This document shows, piece by piece, positions 1,020-36,307 of a DNA stretch of 49,846 bases. This DNA is from Candidatus Gastranaerophilales bacterium (GTDB lineage Bacteria > Cyanobacteriota > Vampirovibrionia > Gastranaerophilales > Gastranaerophilaceae), in contig CALURX010000011.1 of assembly GCA_944323265.1 (NCBI GenBank), positions 1-49,846 on the forward strand, written 5' to 3'. Position 1 is the first letter of the stretch; every line of letters starts with the position of its first letter. The translations under genes were made by a program, and so were the position numbers. A model generated the notes under the pieces. The model saw only the letters and a list, made by a program, of their open reading frames with translations. It did not search any database and was not told the origin of the DNA.

Positions 1020-1568
1020 ATGAAAAAGTATTTAGTATTTGTATTATTGTTAATAACCTCTTTGGCTTGTTTTGCCTTAGAGAAACCTCGTTGGGTGGGG
1101 CTTCCTATATATGTTTATATACCTGAAAATGGTCAGATGAGTAAGCTTATGAAACAGGCTTTTGAGTCTTGGGAGGAGAGTTCCAAATCTTTGGTTCGTT
1201 TTAAGTTTGTAAATAATCCGAATACAGCAAATATAGAAGTTGAATTTGTTGATTTCGTTGCCAATTGTAATGATGCGGGGGCTGTTGGTTGTACTGAGAT
1301 GATGACAAGAGGCGGTCAGTATTATAAGGCTTATGTAACGATTGGTACAAAGGAATATTTGCGTACATATGAGGGCGGACAATATATAAGAAAGATTGTT
1401 ACTCGTTCAAAGGATCATATTTATGGGGTAATGCTGCATGAAGCCGGACATGCTATTGGATTAAATCATTCACCAAATCAGGGAAGCATTATGTATCCTT
1501 ATGATTTAGACTCAATGCAATATCTTACGGACGAGGACATGCGGTTATTATACAATAAGTATCATTAA
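1020..1568 (+). CDS. Secreted matrixin-like zinc metalloprotease
   Basis: 182 aa. Residues 1-19 form a Sec signal peptide (MKK, hydrophobic stretch with LLLITSLACFA). The C-terminal part has the extended zinc motif HEAGHAIGLNH (three His ligands plus catalytic Glu, HExxHxxGxxH), followed by SIMYP, whose Met is the met-turn of metzincins. The order and size fit a minimal peptidase M10A (matrixin) catalytic domain. No propeptide cysteine switch or hemopexin domain is seen. It is probably exported to periplasm or medium to cut proteins or peptides; the substrate is unknown. There is no Shine-Dalgarno sequence, because the promoter -10 box lies 10 nt before the ATG. The gene stands alone between the rRNA operon and rpoB. 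Confidence 0.88.
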   Translation: MKKYLVFVLLLITSLACFALEKPRWVGLPIYVYIPENGQMSKLMKQAFESWEESSKSLVRFKFVNNPNTANIEVEFVDFVANCNDAGAVGCTEMMTRGGQYYKAYVTIGTKEYLRTYEGGQYIRKIVTRSKDHIYGVMLHEAGHAIGLNHSPNQGSIMYPYDLDSMQYLTDEDMRLLYNKYH

Positions 1569-12366: not shown

Positions 12367-12798
12367 TTATGATTGTAAAAGTCCTGTATCTTGAGCTGCT
12401 GTAGAAGTTGCAGTCTTTTCGCTTTCCTGTTGAGCTCTCATTTCTTCTAACAATGTATCATACATAGATTTCATTGTGTCATATTCTATATCTAAGTCTG
12501 CGAGTTCAAGTGATAACTCTTCATCATATTGTTTAACTTTTGCGTGAGCATAGGCGTCTGCAAGCATTTCATTGTTGTTGCCTTCTGCAACTGTAACTCC
12601 GCCGGCCTTTAATTCTTTTGTATTATCAATGGCTGAGTCAAATGCGCTTTCCCATTTTTCTTCATATTTAACTTGTTCATTTAACTTAGCACTGTTAGCT
12701 TCATACTTAGCATTCCAGTATATAGATTGCTGAGTATAGTAGTTAATATCTGCGTTAGTGTTTAATAAGTTTCCTAATAATGCTGCTGTGTTTGCCAT
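12367..12798 (-). CDS. Orphan 143-aa helical protein, WExA family
   Basis: 143 aa, acidic, strongly helical, no cysteine, no signal peptide and no membrane segment. Around residue 49 it carries WESAFDSAID. A similar WETALDAQ segment occurs in the 143-aa protein at 35366-35797, where the length is the same. The two also share a promoter block at the same distance from the ATG. The tail is Ser/Thr/Gln/Ala-rich and probably disordered. Such features are common in substrates or chaperones of flagellar/type III export, and the export genes begin 0.8 kb away, but no known family was recognised and the role is open. Confidence 0.78.
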   Translation of the reverse strand: MANTAALLGNLLNTNADINYYTQQSIYWNAKYEANSAKLNEQVKYEEKWESAFDSAIDNTKELKAGGVTVAEGNNNEMLADAYAHAKVKQYDEELSLELADLDIEYDTMKSMYDTLLEEMRAQQESEKTATSTAAQDTGLLQS

Positions 12799-12822
12799 CT
12801 TCTTATACCTTTTGTTTCATCT

Positions 12823-12884
12823 TACATATATATAAAGTATTTATAAATTATTGAATTTCACAAAGGCTTTATTTTGTTACAAAA
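12823..12884 (-). promoter_or_regulatory. Shared promoter block with 13-bp palindrome (copy 1)
   Basis: Read on the minus strand: TTTTGTAACAAAA (12884-12872, a palindrome with one central base), then exactly 29 nt containing CTTTGTGAAATT, then the 20-mer AAATACTTTATATATATGTA (12842-12823), then 24 nt to the ATG at 12798. The same arrangement with the same distances stands before the gene ending at 35797. The 20-mer probably holds the -10 element and the palindrome may be an operator. Both roles are inferred. Confidence 0.65.
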
Positions 12885-12925
12885 CTTAATATTCATATCT
12901 AAGTTACTATTTATATGCAAACCAG

Positions 12926-13619: not shown

Positions 13620-14378
13620 ATGAAGTTATTTAATATAAATAAGTGGGCAGGAGCAGTAGGCTTATTCTTGTTGTCTGCAATACCATCGCAGGCTGCAATG
13701 ACGTTTCCTAATATTAATATAGGGCTCCAAAATGCAAATACTCCGCAAGATTTTACAAATGGTCTGCAAATATTGATTTGGTTGACTATCTTGACCCTGG
13801 CGCCAAGTATTTTGATAATGACGACTTCTTTTATAAGGCTTGTTGTAGTGCTTTCTCTAACAAGACAAGCAATTGGTGCCGGAACATTGCCTCCTAACCA
13901 GGTTATAACAAGTTTGGCATTGATTTTAACTTTCTTTATTATGGCGCCGACTTTTAATGAAATTAATGAAAAGGCTCTGCAGCCTTATATGAATAACCAA
14001 ATTACACAGCAGGCAGCCATAGACAGGGGGATTGAGCCTATTAGAACTTTTATGTTTAAGCAGACGCATGAAAAGGAATTGGCGCTTTTTGTGAGAATGG
14101 CAAAGATAGAAAAGCCTAAAAACAGGAACGATGTTCCAACTTATGTCCTGCTTCCTGCGTTTATTCTAAGTGAACTGAAAACGGCCTTCACTATAGGCTT
14201 TGTTGTTTATATGCCGTTCCTTGTAATTGATATCGTTGTTTCATCAGTTCTTGTATCAATGGGTATGATGTTTCTGCCTCCGACGATGATTGCTCTTCCG
14301 TTTAAACTTATTATGTTTGTTATGGTTGACGGATGGTATCTTGTTGTTAAATCTCTTGTTGAAAGCTTTGTGAGGTAG
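13620..14378 (+). CDS. fliP: Flagellar-type export apparatus protein FliP
   Basis: 252 aa. A cleavable signal peptide (residues 1 to about 26, ending SQAA) is followed by the FliP core: TM segments at about 50-75 and 95-115, the conserved FIRLVVVLSLTRQAIG, the LPPNQVI segment, the periplasmic loop, and the C-terminal pair with TAFTIGFVVYMPFLVIDIVVSSVLVSMGM and MFVMVDGWYLV. FliP forms the export gate pore with FliQ and FliR. First gene of the operon; fliO is not next to it. Sequence and the signal peptide favour the flagellar over the injectisome (SctR) form. Confidence 0.95.
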   Translation: MKLFNINKWAGAVGLFLLSAIPSQAAMTFPNINIGLQNANTPQDFTNGLQILIWLTILTLAPSILIMTTSFIRLVVVLSLTRQAIGAGTLPPNQVITSLALILTFFIMAPTFNEINEKALQPYMNNQITQQAAIDRGIEPIRTFMFKQTHEKELALFVRMAKIEKPKNRNDVPTYVLLPAFILSELKTAFTIGFVVYMPFLVIDIVVSSVLVSMGMMFLPPTMIALPFKLIMFVMVDGWYLVVKSLVESFVR

Positions 14379-14384
14379 TGGAAA

Positions 14385-14660
14385 ATGAATCAGGACGTAG
14401 TTATAACGATATTGCAAAAAATGTTTATATTAACTCTTGAGATGTCTGTTCCGATCTTATTGGTCGGGGTTGTACTGGGGCTTATGGTTAGTATATTCCA
14501 AACAGTAACACAGATTCAGGAGTCTACTCTTACGTTTGTTCCTAAAATTGTAGGGTGTGTGCTGCTTCTAATCTTTCTTATGCCCTGGATGTTCAGTGTA
14601 TTTATTACAACGGTGAATGAGTTTATGGATATGATTCCACAATTAATCGGCGGGTTCTGA
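14385..14660 (+). CDS. fliQ: Flagellar-type export apparatus protein FliQ
   Basis: 91 aa, two membrane helices separated by a short loop containing SIFQTVTQIQESTLTFVPKI, the FliQ hallmark. Six nt after fliP; its TGA overlaps the fliR ATG by one base. Four copies are expected per export gate. Confidence 0.95.
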   Translation: MNQDVVITILQKMFILTLEMSVPILLVGVVLGLMVSIFQTVTQIQESTLTFVPKIVGCVLLLIFLMPWMFSVFITTVNEFMDMIPQLIGGF

Positions 14661-15439
14661 TGTTTAATCTGGATGTGTTATTTTCAGTCGGGAATATAAT
14701 ACTTTTTATGGCAATTTTAACGAGATTGTCAGGTCTGTTCGCGTCAGCTCCTTTATTTTCAACATATCCGATTCCTATGCAGGTAAAAATATGGCTTGCT
14801 GCATCAATTGCCTTTATACTTTTCCCAATTGTTCAGCATAATACGCAATTTGTTGTTCCGAATTCTGTCCCTGCATTGACATTGATTTTATTTAAAGAAT
14901 TTTTAATCGGCTTTGCAATGGGATTTTGTGCAAATATAATTTTCGTGGGAATAGAACTCGGTGTAAATATGTTCGCAATCCAGATGGGTATATCTGCAGA
15001 CCAGGCATTAAACCCTTCATCCGGCGGAAACTCTCCAGTTATAACTCAAGCATACACCTATCTTGCTTCTATGCTTTTTATTATAATAGGGGCCCATCAG
15101 TGGTTATTTTCTGCTATTTACAATAGTTTCAAAACCATGCCTGTAGGATACGGCTTTGCTTTTTCTCCGGAAATTATAGGTGAAATTGTGAGGATGACAA
15201 GCCAGCTTTTTAGCATAGGACTTAGTATTGCTTTACCAATTTTTGGGGTGTTATTTATAACAGACATCCTGCTTGGGTTTACGTCTAAGATGATGCCGCA
15301 GATGAACATATTTATGGTATCAATACCTTTAAAAATTTATCTGGGGCTTTTGTTATCACTCATATTTGTGCGCCCGATGGCAGAGTATATGGTAGTTATG
15401 ATAGAACGATTTATTGAGCAGATAGCTTTGGTATTTTAA
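14660..15439 (+). CDS. fliR: Flagellar-type export apparatus protein FliR
   Basis: 259 aa with about six membrane helices. Conserved parts are the N-terminal RLSGLFASAPLFS, the middle KEFLIGFAMGFC and GVNMFAIQMGIS, and the C-terminal TDILLGFTSKMMPQMNIFMVSIPLKIYLGLL. FliR is the single-copy gate subunit that closes the FliP5Q4R1 helical assembly. Overlap with fliQ implies coupled translation. Confidence 0.95.
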   Translation: MFNLDVLFSVGNIILFMAILTRLSGLFASAPLFSTYPIPMQVKIWLAASIAFILFPIVQHNTQFVVPNSVPALTLILFKEFLIGFAMGFCANIIFVGIELGVNMFAIQMGISADQALNPSSGGNSPVITQAYTYLASMLFIIIGAHQWLFSAIYNSFKTMPVGYGFAFSPEIIGEIVRMTSQLFSIGLSIALPIFGVLFITDILLGFTSKMMPQMNIFMVSIPLKIYLGLLLSLIFVRPMAEYMVVMIERFIEQIALVF

Positions 15440-15460
15440 GATAGGATAAAATATTAACAG

Positions 15461-16540
15461 ATGGGGAACGAAGCAGCAGAAAAAACCGAAGAAGCCACCA
15501 CCCGACGGCGAACGAAAGAAAGGGAACGCGGTAATGTAGCAAAAAGCCGTGATATGGATTCTGCGCTTGTTATGGTTGCGGGGATTGCTCTGCTTGCGAT
15601 TTTTGCATCCGGCATGATAGAAAATATCCAAAACATGCTAAGAGATACTTTTTCTCATCTCAATGTCTCTGAAGTGGATGTTAACAATATTCTGGGACTC
15701 TTGTCGCCTTATTTGATATACTTAGCAAAAATCCTCCTTCCGTTTCTTGTTCTGCTTTTGATAGCTTCAATATTTATAATACGTTTTAATGTCGGGCATG
15801 TATTTGCTCTCCAGAGAGCAAAAATTGATTTAAATAATCTTTCACCAAGAAGGATGCTTCAAAATGCCAAGCGTATGTTTAACCCTTTTGAACCGCGTTC
15901 AATGGTAGAATTTGCAAAGTCTATTTTGAAAATCGTTGTTGTAGGTGCTTGCGGTTATTCTGCAATAAACAGCAGAAAGGGTGATTTGTTAGGGCTTATC
16001 GGGCTTGAAATCCCTGTTGCGCTTAATATTATTGTATCAATAATAATTAATATGATTATCAATATGTGTCTTGCAATGCTTGTTCTCGGGTATCTTGACA
16101 AGAAGTACCAGAACTACGAGTATGAAAAATCCATTAAGATGACAAAGCAAGAAATTAAAGACGAGCATAAGGATACAGAAGGTGATCCGAAGATAAAGGC
16201 CAAAATCAAGTCTATACAAATGCAGATGGCAAGGCAGCGAATGATGGCAGCAGTCCCTGAAGCGGATGTTGTAGTAACAAACCCGACGCATTATGCTGTT
16301 GCAATAAAATATGATAAAACCAAGGCTCCTGCGCCTATGGTTACTGCAAAAGGTGTTGATTATCTGGCATTCCAGATAAGAGAGATTGCAAAAGAAAATA
16401 ATGTACCGATTGTAGAGAATCGACCGGTTGCACGAGCCCTCTACAATTCTGTACCAATTAATGGTATAATACCATCAGATATGTATGTTGCTGTTGCAGA
16501 AATTCTGGCTTATGTTTTCAGACAGAAAAATGAACAGTAA
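15461..16540 (+). CDS. flhB: Export gate switch protein FlhB, autocleaving
   Basis: 359 aa. The charged N-terminus (EKTEEATTRRRTKERERGNVAKSRD read in two pieces) is followed by four membrane helices and the cytosolic domain. The autocleavage motif is N274-P275-T276-H277 in VVVTNPTHYAVAIKYD; cleavage between Asn and Pro switches substrate class. The C-terminal KGVDYLAFQIREIA and VENRPVARALY are conserved. Twenty-one nt after fliR and 33 nt before flhA. Confidence 0.96.
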   Translation: MGNEAAEKTEEATTRRRTKERERGNVAKSRDMDSALVMVAGIALLAIFASGMIENIQNMLRDTFSHLNVSEVDVNNILGLLSPYLIYLAKILLPFLVLLLIASIFIIRFNVGHVFALQRAKIDLNNLSPRRMLQNAKRMFNPFEPRSMVEFAKSILKIVVVGACGYSAINSRKGDLLGLIGLEIPVALNIIVSIIINMIINMCLAMLVLGYLDKKYQNYEYEKSIKMTKQEIKDEHKDTEGDPKIKAKIKSIQMQMARQRMMAAVPEADVVVTNPTHYAVAIKYDKTKAPAPMVTAKGVDYLAFQIREIAKENNVPIVENRPVARALYNSVPINGIIPSDMYVAVAEILAYVFRQKNEQ

Positions 16541-16573
16541 AGGGCTTGGGAGAAGTTAATAAAGAGGTAGGAA

Positions 16574-18676
16574 TTGGGTAAGTTAGCAAAATTACTTAGC
16601 AATAATGATATCGTCCTTGCAATAGGCTTGGTCGTTATCGTATGCATGATGGTAATTCCGCTGCCTGCTCCATTATTGGATATTTTATTAACGATAAACA
16701 TATCTCTTGCTGTAGTAATTCTTCTTGTTTGTCTTTATACGCAAGAACCTCTTGATTATTCATCATTCCCTACTGTACTTCTTATCGCAACACTGTTTCG
16801 TCTGGGTCTGAACGTAAGTTCAACGCGTTTAATTCTGCTTCATGGGCAGGCGGGTAATGTAATCAGCTCATTTGGAGAGTTTGTTGTCGGCGGGAATTAC
16901 GTTGTAGGTGCGGTAATATTTTGTATTCTGGTTTTGATTAACTTTATGGTAATCACAGGCGGTGCAACTCGTGTTGCTGAAGTATCTGCAAGGTTTACAT
17001 TGGATAAAATGCCTGGTAAGCAGTTAAGTATTGACGCGGATTTAAATTCAGGATTAATAAACGAAGATCAGGCAAAAGAAAGAAGAAGAAAACTGGAAAG
17101 AGAAACCGACTTCTACGGTACAATGGATGGTGCATCTAAATTCGTAAAGGGCGATGCAACGGCAGGTATTGTTATTACTGTTGTAAACATTGTCGGCGGC
17201 TTGATTATCGGAGTTGTGCAAATGCACATGAACATACAGACCGCACTTACTACTTATACAATACTGACTGTAGGTGATGGTCTTGTATCACAAATTCCAG
17301 CGCTTTTGATTTCAACTGCAACAGGTTTAATCGTTTCAAGGGCCAGCGGAAAAGATGAATCTCTTTCTCAGGATATTAAAAATGAAATGTTTTCTGACCC
17401 TAGAGTTCTCGGTGTTGTATCCGGTCTTTTAGGATTTATGGGGGTAGTTCCCGGCATGCCAACAGGCCCATTTCTTTTGATAGCGGCTGTTGTTGGGGGT
17501 ATGGCTTATTGGAAGGCTAAAGAGAAAAAAGAACTTATTCAAACCCAGCAGGAAGAGATGGTACAGCAGGCACAGCAGGAAAAACTCGGCAAAAAAGAAA
17601 AACGTGCAAAAGCTACAAGAGAAAGTGTTATGGAACTTCTTAACGTTGATACAATCGAAATAGAAGTCGGATACAGGCTGGTTCAGCTTCTCAATGTAGA
17701 AATGGGCGGAGATTTGCTTGAACGTATTGCACAAATCAGACGTCAGACAGCGTTGGATTTGGGGATTGTACTTCCGTCAATACGTGTTAGAGATAATTTG
17801 CAATTATCACCGAATTCATACCAGATTAAGCTTAAGGGTGTTGCTCTTGAATCAGGTGAAGTTTATCCAGAACGGTATCTTGCTATGTGTGCGGGAGACC
17901 CTGTAGGAAATTTTGCGATAAATGGTATACATGCAATTGAGCCGGCATTTGGGCTGCCTGCTTTATGGATAGAAGGCAAGGATAAAGATATGGCAGAAAT
18001 GTCCGGCTACACGGTAGTTTCTGCGTCTGCCGTAATTTCTACGCATATTACGGAGGTTATTAAGAAGTGTGCATCTGAAATTCTTTCAAGATTTGACGTT
18101 CAACAGCTTATTGATAACCTTAAAAAAGAAGTTTCGGAAGATTATGTCAACGATATTATGAAAGATATCTCTGTGGGTGATGTTCAGCTTGTAATGCAAA
18201 ACCTTCTTAAAGAGGGAGTTGCAGTTCGTGATTTGAAAACTATTCTTGAAACAATGAGCGTACAGGCTAAAATTAATAAAAATCCGAGCTTCCTTACAGA
18301 GCATGTACGTCAGGCACTTTCCAGAAATATTTGCAAGCAGAACCTTGCTGATACCGGAGAATTGTACGTTATTACTCTGGCTCCTGATGTCGAAAATACA
18401 ATTGCAAAAGGAGCAAGTCCTGATGGGCAGAGCGTTACGCTGGATCCAAGCTTTACGAAGAATATGTTTGATAAGATGAATGTAGAATTAGAAAAAGCAA
18501 TTACTGCAACTGGAAATCAGCCTGTAATCCTGTGTTCATCACCAATAAGACTTTTGTTTAGAAAATTAGTTGAAAGAACATACCCGCAAATTGCGATTAT
18601 GGCTTATAATGAAATTAGCCCTAACGTTAAGGTAAAATCTGTAGGTATGGTAAAAGTGGAAGCTGTTAAACGATAG
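16574..18676 (+). CDS. flhA: Export gate protein FlhA
   Basis: 700 aa, TTG start at 16574 after AGAGGTAGG. The N-terminal half has about eight membrane helices and the FHIPEP-family signature RLGLNVSSTRLILL, followed by the cytosolic loop with the conserved ISTATGLIVSRAS. A Gln/Lys-rich linker (about 318-345) leads to the cytoplasmic ring-forming domain that receives export chaperones and substrates. Normal length for flagellar FlhA. The operon lacks ATPase, C-ring and rod genes here, so these must lie elsewhere if the flagellum is complete. Confidence 0.96.
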   Translation: MGKLAKLLSNNDIVLAIGLVVIVCMMVIPLPAPLLDILLTINISLAVVILLVCLYTQEPLDYSSFPTVLLIATLFRLGLNVSSTRLILLHGQAGNVISSFGEFVVGGNYVVGAVIFCILVLINFMVITGGATRVAEVSARFTLDKMPGKQLSIDADLNSGLINEDQAKERRRKLERETDFYGTMDGASKFVKGDATAGIVITVVNIVGGLIIGVVQMHMNIQTALTTYTILTVGDGLVSQIPALLISTATGLIVSRASGKDESLSQDIKNEMFSDPRVLGVVSGLLGFMGVVPGMPTGPFLLIAAVVGGMAYWKAKEKKELIQTQQEEMVQQAQQEKLGKKEKRAKATRESVMELLNVDTIEIEVGYRLVQLLNVEMGGDLLERIAQIRRQTALDLGIVLPSIRVRDNLQLSPNSYQIKLKGVALESGEVYPERYLAMCAGDPVGNFAINGIHAIEPAFGLPALWIEGKDKDMAEMSGYTVVSASAVISTHITEVIKKCASEILSRFDVQQLIDNLKKEVSEDYVNDIMKDISVGDVQLVMQNLLKEGVAVRDLKTILETMSVQAKINKNPSFLTEHVRQALSRNICKQNLADTGELYVITLAPDVENTIAKGASPDGQSVTLDPSFTKNMFDKMNVELEKAITATGNQPVILCSSPIRLLFRKLVERTYPQIAIMAYNEISPNVKVKSVGMVKVEAVKR

Positions 18677-35365: not shown

Positions 35366-35797
35366 TTAACCATTCAATCCATAGTTAAAGTCTTCTTGGA
35401 TATTGTTGGTTAACATTGTGCTCATTGATTCGATATAAGCATTTACTTCTTCAAGTTCAGCACTATCAGTTGTCATTTGAGCATCGAGTGCTGTTTCCCA
35501 GGCTGTTAACTCATCAAGCTGGTCTTGGTATTTAGCAGTAAGCTTATCGATTTCTTCTTCAAAATCAGGAATCTGAGTATAGTCTTTGTATTCAGCCTGT
35601 AATTCTTCATCACTTTCATATAGAGATTTGAAGTAATCTCTGATTGAGTGTTGTTCAGATGATTTCAAAGATTGAGCATCTGCCTGAGAGTAAGTTGCCA
35701 GAGTTTTCTGGTTTTGAAGCTGAGTGATTTCAAGGTTCAACTCATTTCTTCTTAACTTATAGCTTAATAATGTTTCGTGTAAATTTGCGATTGCCAT
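35366..35797 (-). CDS. Second 143-aa helical protein, WExA family
   Basis: 143 aa, acidic, almost all helix with coiled-coil character (NLEITQLQNQKTLA; DFEEEIDKLTAKYQDQLDEL), no Cys, no Trp other than in WETALDAQ near residue 92, no signal peptide. It has the same length as the protein at 12367-12798, a related W-E-x-A-x-D segment, and the same upstream block at the same 24-nt distance from ATG. A role as secreted, filament or chaperone-like substrate of the flagellar-type exporter is a guess; no known family recognised. It is 3' to 3' with the antiporter with no gap. Confidence 0.78.
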   Translation of the reverse strand: MAIANLHETLLSYKLRRNELNLEITQLQNQKTLATYSQADAQSLKSSEQHSIRDYFKSLYESDEELQAEYKDYTQIPDFEEEIDKLTAKYQDQLDELTAWETALDAQMTTDSAELEEVNAYIESMSTMLTNNIQEDFNYGLNG

Positions 35798-35821
35798 CTT
35801 TGTTCACCATCATTTTTATCT

Positions 35822-35883
35822 TACATATATATAAAGTATTTAAATGATATCTAATTTCAAAGACGATATATTTTGTTACAAAA
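35822..35883 (-). promoter_or_regulatory. Shared promoter block with 13-bp palindrome (copy 2)
   Basis: Minus strand: TTTTGTAACAAAA (35883-35871), 29 nt including CTTTGAAATT, then AAATACTTTATATATATGTA (35841-35822), 24 nt before ATG. The 20-mer and the palindrome are identical to those at 12.82-12.88 kb and both distances are the same, although the bases between them differ. Confidence 0.65.
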
Positions 35884-35906
35884 CTTAATATTTTCTATAC
35901 CAAATC

Positions 35907-35935
35907 AAAAAGCCCTCTTTTAAAGAGGGCTTTTT
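35907..35935 (-). terminator. Intrinsic terminator of the 67-aa gene
   Basis: AAAAGCCCTCTTT and AAGAGGGCTTTTT pair around TA/AA; the minus strand runs on into T5. It separates the 67-aa gene from the promoter block of the next minus-strand gene. Confidence 0.88.
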
Positions 35936-35952
35936 GATAATTATTAATTGTA

Positions 35953-36156
35953 TTAATTATTGCTCAAAACAAGTCTAAATGTTGCCAGGTTTTTGATAGA
36001 AAGCATTCTGTGTTTGTTTCCCTGCTTTTCTGCTATCTGGAAAATTCTGCAGATTCTCTGGATTTCTTCAATATCCTTTCTGCTTTCAAGCTTATATACG
36101 TTGTTTATTGGATCTGCTATGACTGACATTGCTGCATTTAGTTCTTGTTCTTTCAT
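35953..36156 (-). CDS. Small basic helical protein
   Basis: 67 aa from ATG at 36156 (MKEQELNAAMSV), preceded by AAGGA at 8 nt. A longer in-frame start at 36207 is rejected because its first 17 codons run through the promoter core. The product is helical, with RKDIEEIQRICRIFQIAEKQ in the middle and a basic end. No signal peptide, no recognised family. Its promoter core is 19/20 identical to that of the two 143-aa genes. Confidence 0.72.
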   Translation of the reverse strand: MKEQELNAAMSVIADPINNVYKLESRKDIEEIQRICRIFQIAEKQGNKHRMLSIKNLATFRLVLSNN

Positions 36157-36179
36157 GATAAAATCCTTTACAAACTGTC

Positions 36180-36199
36180 TATATATATATAAAGTATTT
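36180..36199 (-). promoter_or_regulatory. Promoter core (copy 3, without palindrome)
   Basis: AAATACTTTATATATATATA on the minus strand, 23 nt before ATG at 36156, one mismatch to the core at 12823-12842 and 35822-35841. Further upstream AAGCCTTTTTCTGCAATT recalls the AAGCCTTTGTGAAATT of copy 1, but the TTTTGTAACAAAA palindrome is absent. Confidence 0.6.
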
Positions 36200-36307
36200 C
36201 TGTTCATGAAAATTGCAGAAAAAGGCTTAAATATGAAGAAATGTTAAGTAAAATTATTAAAAATTCCGACTGAAAGTATCACTATTGTTGCTAAATAAAG
36301 TTTTTTA

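What the first reader, a model, noticed from the sequence alone, without database searches (positions are those of the whole stretch)
35366..36156. Family of small signal-less helical proteins that may be export substrates
Two proteins of exactly 143 aa (12367-12798, 35366-35797) share a W-E-S/T-A-F/L-D-S/A segment, acidic helical character and absence of Cys and signal peptide; a 67-aa helical protein follows the same promoter logic. The window also has a complete flagellar-type export gate (fliPQR-flhBA). Filament, cap, needle and effector proteins of such exporters are small, helical, Cys-poor and lack Sec signals. A linked set of substrates or chaperones is a testable idea.
Basis: inference. 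Interest (0 to 1): 0.6.

Follow-up and report, generated by a model that had tools for sequence, protein, structure and literature searches.

The report
Promoter-linked proteins of second export machine
Three small proteins in this gut bacterium share one distinctive DNA switch with dozens of other proteins that lack export tags, and one of them belongs to a family encoded beside a second, flagellum-like secretion machine that is kept even in relatives with no flagellum, so they may be its cargo or building blocks.

Summary
The two 143-aa proteins are real but not homologous; the shared WE-motif is chance. What links them, and the 67-aa protein, is a conserved promoter: AATACTTTATATATATGTAAG about 20 nt before each ATG, with conserved upstream elements. 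It occurs 21 times in the genome, 0 in the control; a profile finds 45 sites at E<=1e-4 and sites in 116 of 117 order genomes. Downstream proteins are mostly orphans; 0 of 37 have a hydrophobic N-terminus versus 35 of 100 background genes. The window's fliPQR-flhBA is the ordinary flagellar gate, present only in flagellin-bearing genomes. A second, divergent export apparatus (FliE/F/H/P/Q/R, FlhA2) is found in nearly all sampled genomes, including those without flagellin (80 of 117). P0002 (35366-35797) belongs to a large family with conserved end helices and variable middle; members lie 8-17 kb from flhA2 in 29 of 83 genomes, and a larger member models like flagellar axial proteins. In two genomes the promoter precedes the operon holding P0002's relative beside this apparatus. 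Best reading: P0002 is an axial-type substrate or helper of the second system. Export is inferred, not shown.

The parts
35366..35797 (-). P0002, 143 aa: two-helix hairpin protein, small member of the axial-like family
35819..35894 (-). shared promoter box of P0002 (profile R1 match, E=1.3e-12); core AATACTTTATATATATGTAAG 35820-35840; upstream TTAAGTTTTGTAACAAAATA 35869-35888
35953..36156 (-). 67-aa co-regulated protein of unknown function
36180..36244 (-). shared promoter box of the 67-aa gene (E=5.4e-9; core 36178-36198 with 3 mismatches)
12367..12798 (-). P0001, 143 aa: co-regulated orphan, not homologous to P0002; orthologue L081:1597-2040 (G076) 49% identical behind the same box
12820..12895 (-). 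shared promoter box of P0001 (E=9.8e-14); core 12821-12841
13620..18676 (+). fliP-fliQ-fliR-flhB-flhA, the flagellar export gate (context; probably not the exporter of P0002)

Best explanation
SHOWN: P0001, P0002 and the 67-aa protein are separate genes behind copies of one promoter type (GTTAA-N5-GTAACAAA ... T-G-[AC]-AATT, about 11 nt, AATACTTTATATATATGTAAG, ATG about 20 nt on) that also precedes about 45 other ORFs, mostly signal-less orphans, in this genome and is conserved across the order. SHOWN: most of these bacteria carry a second flagellar-type export apparatus (here T3SS2) with its own FlhA, FliF, FliP, FliE and FliH, kept where flagellin is lost. SHOWN: P0002 belongs to a paralogous family with conserved N- and C-terminal helices and a middle of very variable length; one member cluster (416-272-90-108 aa) lies beside T3SS2. 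INFERRED: the family forms, caps or helps build an external axial structure (needle, hook or filament-like) of T3SS2; P0002, reduced to the helical hairpin, is a small axial subunit or its helper; the shared promoter switches on this set together with further candidate substrates such as P0001 and the 67-aa protein.
For: Promoter: 21 sites versus 0 in the reversed-pattern control; none in Markov-shuffled window DNA; 45 sites at E<=1e-4 (19 sites trained the model); 116 of 117 genomes. In genus g1 a listed box lies 20-23 nt before 4 of the 5 other listed P0002 orthologues (tables cut, so the fifth is unseen, not absent). Signal-less set: 0 of 37 versus 35 of 100 hydrophobic N-termini, p=3e-6; lower Cys. 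Second apparatus: FlhA2 full-length in 113 of 117, flagellin in 37 of 117; two FliF and FliP types in 12 genomes; loci. Link: family in 117 of 117 order genomes; best hit within 20 kb of flhA2 in 29 of 83 (about 2% expected); FliE2 and FliF2 inside 22 of 80 fetched loci; class-wide 82 of 104 FlhA+ versus 1 of 42 FlhA-; in the FlhA tree the FlhA2 copies of family-bearing taxa form one clade, support 1.0. Box before the 90-108 aa operon beside T3SS2 in L203 (E=5.9e-5) and L196 (E=0.002), and before a 78-aa gene divergent from the 416-aa gene in L195, L196, L200, L226. Own genome: box before a 283-aa gene inside the T3SS2 locus. Structure: the 416-aa member gives 12 chains at Z>=8, 11 of them flagellar rod, hook, filament, junction or cap proteins.
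Against: No secretion data. T3SS2 structural operons themselves mostly lack the box: across 28 loci (481 kb) it was found only in this genome's C4 (one site, seen in two overlapping loci) and once weakly in L152. No sequence similarity between the family's ends and flagellin ends (hhalign), nor to PDB chains except weak coiled-coil-type hits. The 416-aa model has pTM 0.44, Foldseek gives no significant hit (best E 0.13), and Z 8-9 can reflect a common arrangement. P0002's own model matches any long helical hairpin. In this genome P0002 itself is not beside T3SS2. The regulon also holds likely cytoplasmic proteins (CopG-type regulators, HEAT repeats, HD domain) and boxes with no ORF. 22 FlhA+ genomes lack the family.
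Confidence: 0.45

Rival explanations
1. A general stress, growth-phase or response-regulator promoter controls many unrelated cytoplasmic and envelope proteins. P0001, P0002 and the 67-aa protein are ordinary internal coiled-coil proteins; the absence of signals and the T3SS2 neighbourhood are incidental.
For: The regulon includes CopG-type regulators, HEAT-repeat and HD-domain proteins; boxes without ORF; the T3SS2 structural operons mostly lack the box; no export assay.
Against: P0002's family sits beside flhA2 far above chance, tracks FlhA across the class, and the box occurs in the T3SS2-adjacent cluster.
Confidence: 0.3
2. P0002 and its 108-aa relatives are internal T3SS2 parts of the FliJ/SctO (stalk, chaperone-escort) or chaperone type, not exported substrates.
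For: Two-helix hairpin of about 110-143 aa; the solved YscO (4mh6) gives Foldseek probability 1.00 and TM 0.75 on the query; neighbourhood of T3SS2.
Against: E=0.19 in the same search, and unrelated hairpins score well too; relatives carry large beta-rich insertions and occur in many copies per genome, unlike a single stalk protein (recalled knowledge of FliJ/SctO).
Confidence: 0.15
3. They are substrates of the flagellar gate in this window.
For: Same window; the genome has nine flagellin-domain matches and a flagellar FliF-FliG-FliH-FliI cluster.
Against: The promoter and P0002's family are present in genomes without flagellin and without flagellar-type FlhA.
Confidence: 0.07
4. P0002 is an LXG/WXG-type protein of a type VII-like system.
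For: Weak LXG hit, E=0.0055.
Against: 17.1 bits, below the 26.5 cut-off; coiled-coil bias; type VII genes were not searched for systematically.
Confidence: 0.02

Closest known systems
Flagellar axial proteins (flagellin, FlgL, FlgG, FlgE)
   Same: Conserved N- and C-terminal helices flanking a variable middle; the modelled end helices of the 416-aa relative align with rod, filament and junction proteins (Z 8.2-9.2); encoded beside an export apparatus.
   Different: No detectable sequence similarity; no Pfam flagellin or rod domain; present where flagellin is absent.
Non-flagellar T3SS as profiled by Abby and Rocha 2012 (PMC3459982, passages read)
   Same: Core export genes kept without flagellin; their 'Myxo' group is a precedent for a motility-less relative without secretin.
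   Different: T3SS2 keeps FliE and, in deep branches, rod proteins, which that study used as flagellum-specific markers; FlhA2 scores under both the FlhA and the SctV cut-offs.
'Incomplete flagellar gene sets' of Gastranaerophilales (Soo 2014, PMC4040986; Di Rienzi 2013, PMC3787301; passages read)
   Same: Probably the same genes: Di Rienzi lists two flhA copies and a flgG-flgG-flgC-fliF-fliH-flhA-fliI-flgE stretch among genes shared by all four genomes.
   Different: [quoted passage not shown] the passages read do not describe a separate, widely kept apparatus or dedicated substrates.

Membership tests
Flagellin / flagellar axial proteins | Match to the flagellin, rod or hook Pfam models | tested here: not met
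   P0002 and the T3SS2-adjacent cluster proteins give no such Pfam hit
Flagellin / flagellar axial proteins | Sequence similarity of the terminal helices to flagellin | tested here: not met
   hhalign probability below 1% for all four end comparisons
Flagellin / flagellar axial proteins | D0/D1-like arrangement of end helices around a variable middle | tested here: inconclusive
   416-aa relative: 11 of 12 chains at Z>=8 are flagellar axial proteins, but pTM 0.44 and Z under 13; P0002 alone matches generic hairpins
Flagellin / flagellar axial proteins | Export through an FlhA-type gate and polymerisation | not testable with these tools
   needs proteomics and microscopy
FliJ/SctO stalk family | Two-helix coiled coil homologous to FliJ/YscO | tested here: inconclusive
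   4mh6 TMq 0.75, prob 1.00, E 0.19; no such sequence hit
LXG (WXG superfamily) | PF04740 above cut-off | tested here: not met
   17.1 bits against 26.5
Flagellum (for T3SS2) | FlhA equivalog TIGR01398 above cut-off | tested here: not met
   701 against 772.1 for the G014 copy; the window's FlhA scores 855
Flagellum (for T3SS2) | Flagellin present | tested here: not met
   37 of 117 genomes have Flagellin_N; FlhA2 full-length in 113 of 117
Non-flagellar T3SS (for T3SS2) | SctV equivalog TIGR01399 above cut-off | tested here: not met
   585.8 against 692.25
Non-flagellar T3SS (for T3SS2) | No FliE, FlgB, FlgC | tested here: not met
   FliE 61.1 bits against cut-off 30; rod-type genes in the G011 locus
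Non-flagellar T3SS (for T3SS2) | Secretin | not tested
   only a 122-aa protein with a weak T2SS-T3SS_pil_N hit (E 0.016, below cut-off) was seen in the fliPQR2 operon; no genome-wide secretin search

The most novel reading that the evidence does not exclude
Gut Gastranaerophilales and related Vampirovibrionia possess a further lineage of type III export machine, neither flagellum nor known injectisome, with its own many-copy family of axial surface proteins and a large promoter-defined set of signal-less export substrates, kept in nearly all host-associated lineages that have lost swimming.
Probability: 0.35. Interest if true: 0.88.

Novelty: new variant of a known kind. Interest (0 to 1): 0.66.

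Why it matters
Gastranaerophilales live in human and animal guts and are nearly all uncultured; their flagellar genes have been printed as a flagellum or as decayed remnants. If most carry a working second export apparatus with dedicated surface proteins and a recognisable promoter for candidate cargo, there is a concrete, testable route by which they could act on hosts or neighbours, and a new comparison point for how flagella turn into secretion systems. The promoter gives a simple way to list candidates in any genome of the group.

Tried and rejected
Homology of the two 143-aa proteins: rejected. Pfam, NCBIfam, PHROGs for P0001/P0002: nothing above cut-off. Flagellin homology by profile: none. 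Solved-structure sequence searches: nothing useful. Viral fold library with the 416-aa model: no clear match, best E 3.9e-3, prob 0.44. Fold tables for P0002: absence of a family from these lists is not evidence. P0001 was not modelled (both jobs went to P0002's family). Expecting the box in T3SS2 structural operons: not found apart from this genome's C4 and one weak hit. Literature: searches 'Melainabacteria + type III secretion', 'Vampirovibrionia + secretion system' (35), 'Gastranaerophilales + secretion system' (95), 'Melainabacteria + flhA' (103), 'Gastranaerophil + T3SS' (104), 'Melainabacteria + regulon' (105) returned nothing that, from listings and the passages read, describes this apparatus, family or promoter; the library is open-access only. 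Papers seen: passages of PMC4040986, PMC5877343, PMC3459982, PMC3787301, PMC4451040; listings otherwise.

Limits: model R1 was trained on 19 sites of this genome, so these match by construction; its E-values are rough and there was no reversed-model control; at most 40 candidates, 15 and 12 were scored per genome, so counts there are lower bounds. Background genes were ORFs of at least 100 aa from the window and four other stretches of this genome; regulon ORFs were at least 50 aa (37 of 48 kept: box score >=22, distance <=60). Start-codon choice was mechanical. The 83 genomes are those whose flhA2 and best family hit were both visible in cut tables.

Full report
1. The observation. The window holds two 143-aa genes on the minus strand, P0001 (12367-12798) and P0002 (35366-35797), both without Cys, and a 67-aa gene at 35953-36156. 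P0001 and P0002 are unrelated by BLASTP (E=51), and each finds only itself, apart from weak hits, in the genome. The 'W-E-S/T-A-F/L-D-S/A' segments lie at residues 49 and 100 and are not conserved in relatives. So 'family' does not hold for the pair.

2. What they do share. Upstream alignment shows the same block before all three starts: AATACTTTATATATATGTAAG, 0 or 3 mismatches, against 0.01 expected in the window. In the whole genome (2.24 Mb, 106 contigs) there are 21 matches at up to 3 mismatches and none for the pattern read backwards. Aligned sites add a bipartite upstream element (GTTAA-N5-GTAACAAA) and T-G-[AC]-AATT about 11 nt before the core. A sequence-only model (R1) finds 45 sites at E<=1e-4 and 60 at E<=0.01 in this genome, and sites in 116 of 117 genomes of the order: 4-39 per genome in the window's family and 0-8 in the other families. 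The core looks like a -10 region or an operator next to one; which factor reads it is unknown.

3. The regulon. Taking the nearest plausible ORF after each site gives 48 proteins; 5 listed sites had no ORF, and more such sites occur in relatives, so some boxes may drive RNAs. Most give no Pfam or NCBIfam hit above cut-off (24 distinct regulon proteins scanned besides those of the window; exceptions: an HD domain, a CopG-type regulator, HEAT repeats, and a protein with phage-lysozyme and LysM domains whose box is weak). None of 37 filtered members has a hydrophobic N-terminus, against 35 of 100 background ORFs (p=3e-6); 3 of 37 against 47 of 100 have any strongly hydrophobic stretch; Cys is lower; the first 30 residues are richer in P, Q, S, N and poorer in K, L, I, V. 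I recall that such bias is typical of type III signals; no predictor was run.

4. Which exporter? The window's fliP-Q-R-flhB-flhA is a true flagellar gate: FlhA scores 855 bits against the 772 cut-off. A second FlhA sits elsewhere (G000:C4). Over 117 order genomes, flagellin is in 37; the high-scoring FlhA type is in 35, all among those 37; the second type is full-length in 113, the four exceptions being perhaps split or missing in assemblies. FliF and FliP also come in two types in the 12 genomes checked, the second type alone in the six that lack flagellin (G086 lacked a second FliF). Loci read give a recurring set: fliE, fliF, an unknown ~340-aa protein at the usual fliG position, fliH, flhA2; and elsewhere a SpoA (FliN/SctQ-type) protein, fliO, fliP, fliQ, usually a small secreted protein, fliR (families checked for examples). 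Deep branches also have rod genes, a transglycosylase and an ATPase gene. FlhA2 is below the curated cut-offs for both flagellar FlhA and SctV. In a tree of 32 FlhA proteins the two types separate with support 1.0 and both extend beyond the order. I call this apparatus T3SS2.

5. P0002 belongs with T3SS2. A 108-aa protein 5.7 kb upstream of fliE2 in G014 resembles P0002 (E=5e-7). A profile of five members (A6) matches end to end, with variable middles, in 117 of 117 order genomes, up to 17 matches each. Members share an N-terminal helix (MGLxxSQxRLLxLTxRK...) and a C-terminal one (...LDxEM..L.TELEAI...NI..SF). In 29 of 83 genomes the best hit lies 8-17 kb from flhA2. A conserved cluster, 416-272-90-108 aa, precedes fliE2-fliF2-(340)-fliH2-flhA2. 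Across 146 genomes of the class the family is in 82 of 104 genomes with an FlhA and in 1 of 42 without (E=7.5e-4); the 22 exceptions are families f9-f11, whose FlhA2-like copies form a separate branch in the sample of the tree. A scan of species genomes gave 518 relatives; the 80 listed records are Gastranaerophilales/Melainabacteria, unnamed or apparently mislabelled bins, plus one short contig labelled Ruminimicrobiellum.

6. The promoter meets T3SS2. In 80 fetched loci R1 found 34 sites. They include the box in front of the 90-108 aa operon in L203 (E=5.9e-5) and, weaker, L196 (E=0.002), and in front of a 78-aa gene divergent from the 416-aa gene in L195, L196, L200 and L226. This genome's own 78-aa relative is boxed too (L053), as is a 283-aa gene inside its T3SS2 locus. 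A boxed 67-aa relative of the window's third protein is in L211. Against this, the structural T3SS2 operons mostly carry no box.

7. Structure. P0002 is predicted as a long antiparallel helical hairpin (pLDDT 92.7); such hairpins match many unrelated proteins, with the injectisome proteins YscO and IpaB among them. A 416-aa relative is predicted as a helix, a beta-rich middle and a helix (pLDDT 87, pTM 0.44). Foldseek gives no significant hit, but 16 of the top 50 rows are flagellar axial proteins (my count); the second aligner puts 11 flagellar axial proteins among the 12 chains with Z>=8, e.g. FlgL 5yti Z 8.2, rmsd 2.2 over 119. Sequence profiles of the ends do not match flagellin. This is a resemblance in arrangement, not proven membership.

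8. Reading. P0002 most likely is a small axial-type subunit, or a helper, of T3SS2. P0001 and the 67-aa protein are co-regulated candidates for the same system with weaker support (I would put each near 0.3). The flagellar gate of the window is a poor candidate as exporter. Nothing here shows secretion. In print (passages of PMC4040986 and PMC3787301) these genes appear as flagellar or as incomplete flagellar sets; six literature searches found no description of the second apparatus, its axial-like family or the promoter.

Noticed in passing
L294:7223-8701, L295:4039-5514, L293:4696-7683: Extra proteins that hold only the cytoplasmic part of the FlhA profile: 491-492 aa in a conserved BamA-like/Skp-like neighbourhood (G014, G067); in this genome a 995-aa protein whose start resembles the T3SS2 340-aa protein, followed by hydrophobic segments and the FlhA part. 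Could be a further substrate-docking platform.
   Followed up: partly
L026, L031, L049 and several loci of L078-L106: Strong promoter boxes with no ORF within 150 nt, conserved between genomes (L026 and L078); possible non-coding RNAs under the same promoter.
   Followed up: no
L138:11260-11628, L139:10792-11148, L142:8806-9213: Small proteins with apparent Sec signals between fliQ2 and fliR2, one with a sub-threshold hit to a secretin-type N-terminal domain.
   Followed up: no
L257:1539-2852: Relative of the 416-aa protein (35% identity) on a short contig labelled Candidatus Ruminimicrobiellum, recalled as Elusimicrobiota; transfer or mis-binning.
   Followed up: no
L058:5350-6453, L058:15862-16122 and other loci: Several non-boxed proteins begin with stretches like MQINRINSQPNFKAV or MQIKNSNIYTPHFKAK; a recurrent N-terminal pattern that might be a sorting signal (read by eye).
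   Followed up: no
window 35907-35936: GC-rich hairpin followed by a T-run (minus strand) between the 67-aa gene and P0002's promoter, read by eye; suggests separate transcription units.
   Followed up: no
window 1020-1568: Matrixin-like metallopeptidase of 182 aa (PF00413, E=9e-13).
   Followed up: no
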